From: Chloroflexota bacterium
GTDB lineage: Bacteria; Chloroflexota; Dehalococcoidia; Lucifugimonadales; UBA3495
Direction of reading: 5' to 3'
Assembly: GCA_028875655.1 (NCBI GenBank)
Contig: JAPPCX010000049.1
Span: 1 to 48,131 of the forward strand
Length of the DNA: 48,131 nucleotides
Made by a program: the position numbers and the translations under genes. Of the stretch, positions 18,481 to 48,131 are shown piece by piece; the first letter of the stretch is position 1; each line of letters starts with the position of its first letter. Below the pieces are notes generated by a model. It was not told where the DNA came from. It searched no databases and was given only the letters and a program-made list of their open reading frames with translations.

Positions 18481-18568
18481 ATCGGTGTTAACAACTGAAC
18501 ACTCCAACCAACACCTGTCGGTGACCCGCGTTACCACAGTCCGTCGAAACACGTCGGCGATGACCTGT

Positions 18569-18762
18569 AGAATGCGCGGGATAAAAGGAAATCCGGTGCA
18601 AATCCGGTGCGGTCGCGCCACTGTAATTGGCGAGACGCTCTCCCGTTGGTATCCCTGCAAAGCGGGATGTACACGAAAACCACTGTCTGCCCAGCGTGGA
18701 TGGGAAGGTGGAGAGCCGTCGCTATCAGCCATGAGCCAGGAAGCCTGCCTCAGGTGCATTCT
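18569..18762 (+). ncRNA. Cobalamin riboswitch
   Basis: The conserved core of the adenosyl/aquocobalamin aptamer is readable in order: GGAAATCCGGTGCAAATCCG and GTGCGGTCGCGCCACTGTAA (18587-18626), then a variable arm region, and finally the B12 box GAGCCAGGAAGCCTGCC (18733-18749). AGAATGC (18569-18575) and GCATTCT (18756-18762) can pair as the closing stem P1. It precedes a terminator at 18846 and the solute-binding protein 3/permease operon, so vitamin B12 binding should shut down expression. Riboswitch-controlled uptake operons of this kind import corrinoids or cobalt. The 578 bp between 18431 and 19008 otherwise contains only the promoter and terminator. Confidence 0.93.
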
Positions 18763-18845
18763 GGCTGCACTTCGCGGAACGAGTGAAGCGGATTTACCGG
18801 TAAATCGGGCACGGCTGACCAATGCGACAGGATGCCCGTGAATAC

Positions 18846-18877
18846 GCCCCGTTCACCAAGTGCGGACGGGGCTTTTG
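18846..18877 (+). terminator. Terminator, probable expression platform of the riboswitch
   Basis: Stem GCCCCGT (18846-18852) with ACGGGGC (18866-18872) followed by TTTTGCTGTG. It lies 84 nt after the aptamer and about 130 nt before the solute-binding protein 3 start, so it must be bypassed for expression. This fits B12-dependent attenuation. The sequence is nearly the same as the terminator at 14103-14134. Confidence 0.7.
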
Positions 18878-19008
18878 CTGTGCCCTCGAGAGCCGATTTA
18901 CCCCGGCCGACGCAGGCAAAACCCTTATCCGTTTCACCCGAACCGATGGGTCGGAAGCTATGGGACAGTGTTCACTGGCGGCTCGCTAAAACGTCTCGGA
19001 GGACGAAC

Positions 19009-20742
19009 ATGAGAAAATTATCGATACGGCATTTCAAACCTGCAATGGCCGTGGGGTTCGGTCTTGTGCTGCTCCTGGTGATGGCCTGCGGGGCTCCCGC
19101 GGCGCCCAGCGAGCCGGCTCCGCCCGCGGCGGCCAGCAACCCACAGCCAACCGCGCCAGCCGCCAGCGCTCCCCAACAGCCGGTTGCAACTACCGCGCCG
19201 GCACGCCAATCTGAACAATCGTCTGCCGCTGAACAGCGCACGGCTCCGGCCGCTGCCAATGTCCTGGATCGCCCCACGCTGAACGCCGGCGTCATCTGGC
19301 TGGACAGCCCCCTGGATCCGGTGCTGGGCGGCTGGGTTGCTAGCCAATCCGGTATGTCGGAAAACTTGTTCAGCCTGTCTCCCACCAACTTCAAGCCTGA
19401 GCCGAGGCTGGCGACGGAAGCTACTCATGTGGACCCGTTGACGTGGGAAATAAAGCTGCGGTCGGGCGTGAAATTCCACAACGGCGCCGAGATGGACGCC
19501 GCAGCGGTGAAAGCGTCCCTGGAGCGGACGATCCGGTTATCGGAGGCGTCAGCGGACTCGCTGGGGATTGATACTATAGTAGTGAACGACGAACAGACCA
19601 TCACCATCACCACCCTGGAACCTCGTCCCACGCTACCGGGCCTGTTGACCGCTCCCGGACTCGCCATCACCGATGCCGACGCTGCCGACGCTGCCGGCGA
19701 AGGCAATTTCATCCAGGCGGGCGCCCTGACGGGACCCTACGTCCCCACCGAGTACATCCAGAAGGAACGCCTCAGCAGCGTGGCCAACGACGACTACTGG
19801 GGCGGCGCTCCGCCGCTGGCCGGCATCGAGCACGTCGCCATTCCCGACACCAACAGCCGGGAACTGGCCCTGCAGGCCGGCGACATTGACATTGCCGTCA
19901 ACATATCCCCGGAGGGGGCCCAGACCATCAATGCCCATCCCGATTTGCAGGCCCACACCGCCGGCTTCGGCACCGCGGCGGTGCTGTGGTGGGTCAACTT
20001 CGAGCGGCCGGCCCTGGCCGATCCACTGGTGCGCCGGGCAGTGAGCCTGGCCATTGATCGAGAGAGCATCGCCGGGTTGGTGGCCCCCGCCGGCTCCGGT
20101 TCGTTTGCCGAGCTCCTGCTGCCCGAAGCCCTGGTGTCCTGTCCCGGCGTCAACGCTCCGGGTTACGACACTGCGCAGGCCCGCGACCTGCTGGCCGAGG
20201 CCGGTTACGTTGACACCGACGGCGACGGGTTTGTGGATAAGGACGGCCAGCCCCTGGAGATAGTCATCGGCGGCTACCCCCAACGGTTCCAACTGCCCAT
20301 CATGGCCGAAGCCGCCCAGGCTATGCTCGCCGACGTGGGCATCAAGGCCGAGGTGCTCATCACCGAGTGGTCGGTGGTCAAGGAGCCCGGCTGGGACCTC
20401 TTCGGTTGGTACAACAACGTAGTGGATACCGGAGACCCCATCCTGAACATCAGCAAGTTTGTCGGGGTCAGCGCCGACGCCTCCGGCAGCGGCGCCAACA
20501 ATTACGGCCATTTCCACAGCGCCGAGCTGGAGAACATCATCAGCAGCGCGGCGGACGTTTCGGACACCCGGCAACGGGAGGAGATAGCCTGCCGGGCGCT
20601 GGACATCGTCGCATCCGAAACCGCGCTCCTGCCGGTGGCCCACGCCTACCTGGTGTACGGCGTCAACGAACGAGTCGCCAACTTCGAGCCTCACCCGACC
20701 AACCTCTACTTCTTTGACCACCGGATTGGACTGGGCGAGTAA
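19009..20742 (+). CDS. ABC solute-binding lipoprotein 3 under cobalamin riboswitch
   Basis: Third SBP family 5 paralog, 577 residues, intact. Lipoprotein signal with Cys27 (LLLVMAC-GAP), an Ala/Pro/Gln-rich linker to about residue 85, then the mature domain from PTLNAGVIWLDSPLDP. It retains FHNGAEMDAAAVKASLERT, AIDRESIAGLVAPAGSGSF and DLFGWYNNVVDTGDP. The start is ATG at 19009 after CGGAGGACGAAC; the frame is open upstream as far as 18832 but that part overlaps the terminator and has no homology. It is followed after 42 bp by two permease genes, so this protein is the dedicated binding subunit of that transporter. The riboswitch implies that the ligand is a corrinoid, cobalt, or a cobalt/nickel chelate. 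Confidence 0.88.
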   Translation: MRKLSIRHFKPAMAVGFGLVLLLVMACGAPAAPSEPAPPAAASNPQPTAPAASAPQQPVATTAPARQSEQSSAAEQRTAPAAANVLDRPTLNAGVIWLDSPLDPVLGGWVASQSGMSENLFSLSPTNFKPEPRLATEATHVDPLTWEIKLRSGVKFHNGAEMDAAAVKASLERTIRLSEASADSLGIDTIVVNDEQTITITTLEPRPTLPGLLTAPGLAITDADAADAAGEGNFIQAGALTGPYVPTEYIQKERLSSVANDDYWGGAPPLAGIEHVAIPDTNSRELALQAGDIDIAVNISPEGAQTINAHPDLQAHTAGFGTAAVLWWVNFERPALADPLVRRAVSLAIDRESIAGLVAPAGSGSFAELLLPEALVSCPGVNAPGYDTAQARDLLAEAGYVDTDGDGFVDKDGQPLEIVIGGYPQRFQLPIMAEAAQAMLADVGIKAEVLITEWSVVKEPGWDLFGWYNNVVDTGDPILNISKFVGVSADASGSGANNYGHFHSAELENIISSAADVSDTRQREEIACRALDIVASETALLPVAHAYLVYGVNERVANFEPHPTNLYFFDHRIGLGE

Positions 20743-47229: not shown

Positions 47230-47258
47230 TTGACGAAAATGATGGTTAGTCGTACACT
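47230..47258 (+). promoter_or_regulatory. Sigma70-type promoter of the DUF3800 RNA/gene unit
   Basis: TTGACG (47230-47235) and TACACT (47253-47258) with an exact 17 bp spacer. The start predicted 7 bases after the -10 falls on G47265, which is the first base of the P1 stem of the RNA described next. Confidence 0.7.
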
Positions 47259-47264
47259 GACTTT

Positions 47265-47330
47265 GCGTCTAGGAGGAGTCGCCAAGCGCCTCCCCTCGAG
47301 GACATGTCCTCGACCCTAGTCGCTTTTTTT
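47265..47330 (+). ncRNA. Candidate three-stem structured RNA upstream of DUF3800
   Basis: Three stems fit a compact three-way junction. P1 pairs GCGTCTAGG (47265-47273) with CCTAGTCGC (47315-47323), with one T-T mismatch. P2 is GGAGTCGC-CAA-GCGCCTCC (47275-47293), one T-C mismatch. P3 is TCGAGGA-CATG-TCCTCGA (47296-47313), perfect. Only one to two unpaired bases join them. Seven T follow directly (47324-47330), as in a terminator, and the DUF3800 ribosome site GGAGGG comes right after. RNA motifs have been reported upstream of DUF3800 genes (from memory, Weinberg and co-workers' DUF3800-I to -X), and this looks like one or a new variant; class not identified. The RNA may end here or attenuate the gene. 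Confidence 0.7.
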
Positions 47331-47341
47331 CGGAGGGTACT

Positions 47342-48131
47342 ATGCGACTCTGTTACATTGACGAGTCAGGCACTCCCGACATTCCGGGTAATACCTCCCA
47401 CTACATTTTAGCGGGCCTATCGGTGCCTGACCAATTTTGGCAAAATCATCATCGTCAACTAGAAGCGATCAAAACAAGGTATGGTTTGGCGGACGCGGAG
47501 ATCCATGTGGCTTGGATGATGAGGCCATATGTTGAACAGCAGGGGATAGTGGGCTTTGAAGCGATGCCATATAGTCAGCGCCGATCTGAGATTATCCGAG
47601 CACGCACTGCGGAACTGCTCAAAATACAAAAGGAAAACAACAAACGTTACAAGCAGGTCCGGAAAAACTACCGTCAAACAGATGCATACATCCATTTGAC
47701 GTTGGCAGAAAGACAAAGGCTCGTAAAGGAGCTGGCAAATCTCATTTCAGGTTGGGGCGTCGTTAGGCTCTTCGCCGAATGTATAGACAAGGTGCACTTT
47801 GATCCCACAAGAACTAGGCAAACGGTTCACGAACAAGCCTTTGAGCAGGTGGTCTCTCGTTTCGAACGTTATCTTCGGAACTTAGGGCCTGAATTTGGGT
47901 TGCTTGTCCATGACAATAACCCGACTTATGCCAAAAGACATACGGATCTAATGAGAACGTTCCTCCGGGGAGGAACACTGTGGACCGACGTTGAACGCGT
48001 CATTGAAACCCCTCTATTTGTTGATAGCCAACTGACAGGAATGATTCAGTTGGCCGACCTGTGCGCATACGCACTAAGAGCCTATCCTAATAACCCTGCG
48101 GCCCTGAGGGTGATGAGGGCGCAAGCGAAAT
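47342..48131 (+). CDS. DUF3800 domain protein, partial (runs off window)
   Basis: The frame from ATG 47342 stays open to the window end (263 codons and one base), so the C terminus is missing. It begins MRLCYIDESGTPDIPG, the hallmark of DUF3800 (RNase H-like fold, Y-I-D-E-S-G), and shows AEIHVAWMMR, LFAECIDKVHFDP, LLVHDNNPTYAKRH, and the C-terminal core DSQLTGMIQLADLCAYAL with the expected acidic residue. The ribosome site CGGAGGG precedes the start. Base composition is visibly lower in GC than the surroundings, which suggests horizontal transfer. Molecular function is unknown; a nuclease role is inferred only from fold. It pairs with the structured RNA at 47265-47330. Confidence 0.82.
   Translation, partial: MRLCYIDESGTPDIPGNTSHYILAGLSVPDQFWQNHHRQLEAIKTRYGLADAEIHVAWMMRPYVEQQGIVGFEAMPYSQRRSEIIRARTAELLKIQKENNKRYKQVRKNYRQTDAYIHLTLAERQRLVKELANLISGWGVVRLFAECIDKVHFDPTRTRQTVHEQAFEQVVSRFERYLRNLGPEFGLLVHDNNPTYAKRHTDLMRTFLRGGTLWTDVERVIETPLFVDSQLTGMIQLADLCAYALRAYPNNPAALRVMRAQAK

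What the first reader, a model, noticed from the sequence alone, without database searches (positions are those of the whole stretch)
47230..47341. Promoter, compact three-stem RNA and DUF3800 gene form one precise unit
The predicted transcription start (TTGACG, 17 bp, TACACT) falls on the first paired base of a three-way-junction RNA with stems of 9, 8 and 7 bp, then a run of seven U and a ribosome site for a DUF3800 gene. All three stems are visible in the sequence. RNA motifs upstream of DUF3800 genes have been reported, but their function is unknown. The lower-GC gene suggests a mobile cassette, possibly an RNA plus nuclease-fold protein pair such as a toxin-RNA-antitoxin or guide/effector-like module.
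Basis: partly seen in the sequence, partly recalled or inferred. Interest (0 to 1): 0.85.

Follow-up and report, generated by a model that had tools for sequence, protein, structure and literature searches.

The report
RNA paired with DUF3800 nuclease gene
A small, precisely folded RNA sits directly in front of a gene for an RNase-H-like protein of unknown function, and the same RNA-gene pair turns up in at least 14 bacterial phyla and in phages, so the two very probably work as a pair; this RNA family is not in the public RNA catalogue.

Summary
Promoter (47230-47258), three-way-junction RNA (47265-47323), T7 and ribosome site precede a DUF3800 gene at 47342.

The same leader precedes all 84 relatives whose 5' region is assembled (83 by covariance model, one by folding), from 14 phyla, phages and a Leptospira plasmid. 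Compensatory changes occur in 17 of 23 pairs (0/500 shuffles). The promoter ends 6-7 nt before RNA base 1 in 61 of 82 loci (about 5 expected). No Rfam 15 model matches, but a distant phage DUF3800 gene carries Rfam's DUF3800-VI RNA in the same layout: this is a new family of a known kind.

The protein is predicted to have an RNase HII-like fold with conserved acidic residues. RNA plus gene moves between phyla as a ~1-kb unit without conserved neighbours. Here an insertion sequence splits the gene at 48078; in RNA-first surveys 7 of 15 genomes keep the RNA but lack an intact gene.

Best explanation: a separately made RNA that is the cognate partner of, and probably restrains, a nuclease, as in type III toxin-antitoxin loci. 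Binding, toxicity and defence are inferred, not tested.

The parts
47230..47258 (+). sigma-70 type promoter TTGACG-17-TACACT
   Evidence: sequence, scan; same spacing to RNA base 1 (6-7 nt) in 61 of 82 homologous loci against about 5 expected from shuffles
47265..47323 (+). 59-nt three-way-junction RNA, predicted transcription start at its first base
   Evidence: fold z -4.1; RNAalifold; covariation 17/23 pairs, 0/500 shuffles; model R1 76 bits
47265..47273 (+). P1 5' strand (GCG-U-CUAGG), pairs with 47315-47323 (CCUAG-U-CGC); U.U mismatch at 47268/47320
47275..47293 (+). P2 hairpin (47275-47282 with 47286-47293, CAA loop), U.C mismatch where most relatives have U.U
47296..47313 (+). P3 hairpin (7 pairs, CAUG loop), the variable arm of the family
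47315..47323 (+). P1 3' strand
47324..47330 (+). run of seven T, presumed intrinsic terminator together with P1
   Evidence: sequence; at least 6 T in the 8 nt after P1 in 75 of 82 loci; termination itself not shown
47332..47336 (+). ribosome-binding site GGAGG
   Evidence: sequence
47342..48077 (+). DUF3800 gene, 5' part (about 245 codons); the rest lies on another contig (G000:C59:12082-12225), the gene being split by an insertion sequence with TAA on both sides
   Evidence: PF12686 E 2e-16; phrog_38260 E 8e-91; C-terminal part found
48078..48131 (+). left end of a multi-copy insertion sequence (GAGCCTATCCTAATAAC...), shared with about 17 other contig ends of this genome

Best explanation
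A two-part RNA-protein module. A constitutive promoter starts transcription on base 1 of a compact three-way-junction RNA; most transcripts are inferred to end at the U-run closed by P1, giving a free RNA of about 66 nt, and read-through makes the mRNA of a DUF3800 protein with a predicted RNase HII-like fold. The RNA is the cognate partner of that protein: the protein reads the two like-built, mismatch-bearing helices (P1 base and P2 tip), and the excess RNA keeps the nuclease inactive until a trigger such as phage infection upsets the balance, in the manner of type III toxin-antitoxin loci. Shown here: conserved structure, promoter position, strict linkage of gene to RNA, predicted nuclease fold with conserved acidic residues, horizontal spread, frequent loss of the gene with retention of the RNA. 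Inferred: termination, binding, inhibition, toxicity, defence.
For: Covariation. Promoter-to-RNA spacing 6-7 nt in 61/82. T-run after P1 in 75/82. RNA upstream of every relative whose 5' region is assembled, including L064 whose P1/P2 sequence is wholly different but folds alike. Of 50 gene-bearing genomes 49 have a model hit, one RNA per gene; 7/7 viral pattern hits lie next to the gene. The distant DUF3800 of Pseudomonas phage Marin (24% identity) has promoter, three-way-junction DUF3800-VI RNA, a separate GC-rich terminator-like hairpin, then the gene. RNase HII-like fold Z 10.3; D7, E8, E146, D191, D239 conserved in 72-73 of 73. Mismatches in P1 and P2, which do not pair with each other, change together (8 of 9 P1-changed loci are P2-changed, against 7 of 73; Fisher 1.5e-6, 4e-5 with close kin collapsed), as if one protein reads both. 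RNA distance tracks protein distance (Mantel rho 0.50, 0/999). RNA-first surveys: 7 of 15 genomes have an RNA without an intact gene. Phage copies lie as isolated genes by head or tail genes.
Against: No expression, binding, toxicity or phage data. The RNA is one unit, not the tandem repeats that mark known type III antitoxins (PMC8860590). Six phage or plasmid copies (L109-L113, L136) lack the T-run, so termination is not universal. The RNA is about 15 times shorter than the gene, so random damage hits the gene first even under neutral decay; RNA retention is therefore suggestive only. Related loci are not independent in the Fisher and Mantel tests. PADLOC has no clear match for the protein and its neighbours are mixed.
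Confidence: 0.42

Rival explanations
1. Autoregulatory leader: the DUF3800 protein binds the RNA on its own mRNA and promotes termination at P1-U7, holding its own level low; the RNA has no role away from the gene.
For: Gene always has the RNA in cis and in single copy; P1 is both the most conserved helix and the stem before the T-run; Rfam labels DUF3800-VI as Cis-reg.
Against: T-run missing in phage/plasmid copies while the junction stays intact; phage Marin keeps the RNA apart from a second terminator-like hairpin; intact RNA survives where the gene is gone (L143, L144, L153, L154); no conserved sequence between RNA and start codon for a switch, 12-54 nt of varied length.
Confidence: 0.27
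2. Active ribonucleoprotein: the RNA is a scaffold or activating cofactor for the nuclease rather than an inhibitor, for example for target recognition in defence.
For: Near-invariant sequence, co-changing mismatches, DUF3800 domains recruited into some CRISPR type V and VI loci (PMC10910872; PMC12669027).
Against: No variable guide-length segment; intact RNAs persist without the gene.
Confidence: 0.2
3. Ligand-sensing riboswitch that controls an accessory gene.
For: Structured 5' leader with a T-run.
Against: Found before one gene family only, no alternative fold evident, helices joined by very short linkers, and a related DUF3800 gene carries a different RNA.
Confidence: 0.05
4. The unit is a transposon whose RNase-H-fold protein is the transposase and whose RNA marks the element's end.
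For: Cross-phylum homology starts at or just before the RNA and stops at the stop codon.
Against: One copy per genome, no inverted ends or shared sequence after the stop codon.
Confidence: 0.04

Closest known systems
DUF3800-VI RNA (Rfam RF02915) and the other DUF3800-I to -XI motifs
   Same: Three-way junction of like size directly upstream of a DUF3800 gene on the same strand, behind a promoter
   Different: No Rfam model, DUF3800 ones included, finds the present RNA in the window or its relatives, at E up to 10 for window and L034; the twice-used motif GCG-U-CU/AG-U-CGC is its own; the phage Marin partner protein is only 24% identical
Type III toxin-antitoxin loci (ToxIN, AbiQ)
   Same: Promoter, structured RNA, terminator-like stretch, nuclease-fold gene, in that order; phage-linked and horizontally spread
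   Different: Single RNA unit instead of tandem repeats; RNase HII-like fold; no toxicity or neutralisation shown
RNase HII / RNase H2
   Same: Predicted fold, Z 10.3, rmsd 4.1 over 170 residues; N-terminal Asp-Glu pair (D7, E8) like that of the DEAG motif (own knowledge)
   Different: Foldseek E 0.003 at best, about 10% identity, long helical insert, C-terminal CxCxxC; a different sequence family (PF12686)
CRISPR-associated DUF3800 proteins (with Cas12a2/V-A2 and VI-F)
   Same: Same domain family, RNase H fold, presumed work with RNA (PMC10910872, PMC12669027)
   Different: No TPR domain and no CRISPR link here; own dedicated RNA

Membership tests
DUF3800-associated RNA motifs (the kind described as DUF3800-I to -XI) | lies immediately upstream of a DUF3800 gene, same strand | tested here: met
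   84 of 84 loci with an assembled 5' region
DUF3800-associated RNA motifs (the kind described as DUF3800-I to -XI) | conserved secondary structure supported by covariation | tested here: met
   17 of 23 pairs with double changes, 0/500 shuffles; slid controls far lower; found unaided by RNAalifold
DUF3800-associated RNA motifs (the kind described as DUF3800-I to -XI) | match to one of the existing Rfam models | tested here: not met
   so a new family of this kind and not a member of an existing one
Type III toxin-antitoxin | tandem RNA repeats | tested here: not met
   one RNA unit per locus; criteria as listed in PMC8860590
Type III toxin-antitoxin | terminator between RNA and gene | tested here: inconclusive
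   T-run after P1 in 75/82 loci, but no short hairpin and missing in some phage copies; termination not measured
Type III toxin-antitoxin | toxin with ToxN/AbiQ fold | tested here: inconclusive
   Pfam gives only DUF3800; structure search gives RNase HII-like folds; absence from the list does not exclude
Type III toxin-antitoxin | free protein toxic, RNA neutralises it | not testable with these tools
   needs an expression assay
RNA-guided nuclease (OMEGA/CRISPR-like) | guide-length variable segment at one end of the RNA, or an array | tested here: not met
   54-65 nt, folded end to end, 5' end at the promoter, T-run at the 3' end
RNase HII | RNase HII-like fold with acidic active site | tested here: inconclusive
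   AlphaFold2 pLDDT 95, Z 10.3, D7, E8, E146, D191, D239 invariant or nearly so; geometry of the site not measured
RNase HII | sequence family membership | tested here: not met
   Pfam hit is PF12686 only
Transposable element | multiple copies or terminal repeats | tested here: not met
   single copy in nearly all of 50 genomes, no shared end sequence

The most novel reading that the evidence does not exclude
A new class of RNA-controlled nuclease module: an RNase-HII-fold toxin or anti-phage nuclease held in check by a dedicated 60-nt three-way-junction RNA, spread across more than a dozen phyla and temperate phages, with the other DUF3800 RNAs being diverged variants of the same system.
Probability: 0.35. 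Interest if true: 0.85.

Novelty: new member of a known kind. Interest (0 to 1): 0.62.

Why it matters
The function of DUF3800 genes and their RNAs is open. This family gives a clean handle: exact RNA ends predicted by promoter and T-run, a covariance model, a confident protein model with candidate catalytic residues, paired mismatch motifs that look like the protein's reading points, natural genomes that kept the RNA but lost the gene, and a host recorded without the MAG label (Mesorhizobium sp. NFR06, L082). Each makes a direct test possible.

Tried and rejected
Multi-copy DUF3800: 18 hits in the own genome looked like a repeated gene, but the 17 besides the gene itself are the shared end of an insertion sequence at contig ends. 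Rfam match: none. Window P3 as a DNA operator (18-bp palindrome TCGAGGACATGTCCTCGA): not shared by relatives. Alternative pairing of the repeated GCGUCU/AGUCGC words as two tandem hairpins: contradicted by L032, whose changes restore P1 and P2 pairs but not the alternative. Conserved neighbour gene: none; tallies of 117 flanking proteins give at most 2-3 of any family. tRNA insertion site: few loci have a tRNA anywhere near, no pattern. E. coli: RNA absent. Structure of the truncated window protein without an alignment: poor, not used. Sequence search of solved structures: nothing significant. The 2017 paper that first described the DUF3800 motifs is not held, so motifs published there but absent from Rfam could not be compared.

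Full report
Observation. The sequence is as described: promoter TTGACG-17-TACACT, RNA from 47265, three stems, T7, GGAGG, ATG at 47342. The 59-nt RNA folds into the stated three-way junction with z = -4.1 and no shuffle as stable. P1 and P2 each carry one mismatch (U.U and U.C in the window). The gene is Pfam DUF3800 (E 2e-16), GC 48.5% in a 63.3% window. It is not whole: at 48078 a multi-copy insertion sequence begins, preceded by TAA; the rest of the gene lies at the end of contig C59, again next to TAA and the other end of the element.

Relatives. A search of 301 genomes of the phylum gave three full relatives of 56-63% identity and one fragment, all with the same leader. A profile search gave 105 loci in bacterial genomes (80 kept) and six in viral contigs. 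Two of these 86 are cut or lack the 5' side (L046, L107). In the other 84 the RNA is there: 83 are found by the covariance model built from 78 sequences, and L064 by folding, with wholly different P1 and P2 letters but the same junction. Two further viral contigs found by RNA pattern also have the gene behind it (L136, L138).

Structure test. RNAalifold finds P1, P2 and P3 unaided, with 11 of 18 pairs showing double changes. On the model alignment 17 of 23 pairs have changes on both sides in 123 cells, against 9.2 pairs and 34 cells in shuffles (0/500), and every slid control is far lower; that alignment was fitted to the structure, so the unaided result is the cleaner one. The conserved core is GCG-U-CU/AG-U-CGC in P1 and the same helix turned round in the P2 tip. 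The two mismatches change together although they do not pair with each other; L100 and L162 have A.A in P1 and A.A or A.C in P2.

Start and end of the RNA. A sigma-70 promoter ends 6 or 7 nt before RNA base 1 in 61 of 82 loci; shuffled upstream regions give about 5. So the transcript is predicted to start on or next to the first base of P1, in many phyla alike. After P1, 75 of 82 have at least 6 T in 8 nt. A phage-borne distant relative with the DUF3800-VI RNA reaches the same order by other means: promoter, junction, separate GC-rich hairpin, gene. Some phage and plasmid copies lack the T-run but keep the junction, which speaks for a role of the RNA beyond attenuation.

Linkage and spread. 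In 50 gene-bearing genomes the model finds the RNA once, or twice where there are two genes; the other extras are a decayed copy in a local duplication (L070) and an opposite-strand echo of the same site. The protein tree mixes 14 phyla (28 changes, least possible 13), with cross-phylum pairs such as L077/L080. The tree tool warns that MAG bins can hold foreign contigs. Between such pairs DNA similarity starts at the RNA or its promoter and ends at the stop codon; nothing after the stop is shared. Flanking genes are mixed. In Leptospira phage-plasmids the unit lies near head genes on the opposite strand; in L136 it lies between a tape measure gene and an antirepressor gene.

Loss of the gene. 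RNA-first surveys of five phyla (1,625 genomes, about 1% positive), leaving out the four centres chosen by protein, give 15 genomes with an RNA above 40 bits. Eight have an intact gene. Seven do not: the window genome (insertion), G057 (frame lost), G368 (internal deletion), G184 (none at all), G621 (transposase-like frames where the gene should be), G692 (none at the site), G1018 (one stop). RNA scores there (42-85 bits) overlap those of intact pairs. This fits a costly protein with a harmless or useful RNA, but a short RNA also survives neutral decay longer than a long gene.

Protein. AlphaFold2 with 73 sequences gives pLDDT 95; best structural matches are RNases HII/H2 (Z 10.3; Foldseek E 0.003). 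D7, E8, E146, D191 and D239 are conserved in 72-73 of 73, as are C282, C284 and C287 near the C-terminus, a possible zinc knuckle. In the window genome that C-terminal part is cut off. CRISPR surveys also call DUF3800 an RNase H-fold nuclease (PMC10910872; PMC12669027).

Mechanism. Put together: a separately made small RNA and a nuclease-fold protein that travel and diverge together. I think the RNA binds and restrains the protein (type III toxin-antitoxin-like, 0.42); autoregulation alone (0.27) and an active ribonucleoprotein (0.20) are the main rivals. It is not filed as type III: tandem repeats are absent and toxicity is untested. It is filed as a new family within the DUF3800-RNA kind.

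Noticed in passing
window 48078-48131: Left end of an insertion sequence (inverted end GAGCCTATCCTAANAAC, TAA/TTA at the target) present at about 17 other contig ends of this genome; it breaks the assembly and the DUF3800 gene.
   Followed up: partly
window 18541-18766: Cobalamin riboswitch (65 bits) upstream of a 636-aa ORF (18832-20742) that reads like an ABC-transporter solute-binding protein.
   Followed up: no
L070 2581-2648 and 3582-3649: Two decayed extra copies of the RNA upstream of the real one, separated by an ORF with an HUH-like motif (MPEHIHLI) resembling REP-associated transposases.
   Followed up: partly
L143, L144, L153, L154: Intact RNAs, most with a promoter, in genomes where the DUF3800 gene is deleted or replaced.
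   Followed up: partly
L029 and L079: One Caldilineaceae genome carries two diverged RNA-DUF3800 pairs, useful for testing whether pairs are specific.
   Followed up: no
L120 2895-2950: Pseudomonas phage Marin carries a DUF3800-VI RNA and gene near its CI repressor; the gene is annotated only as hypothetical.
   Followed up: partly
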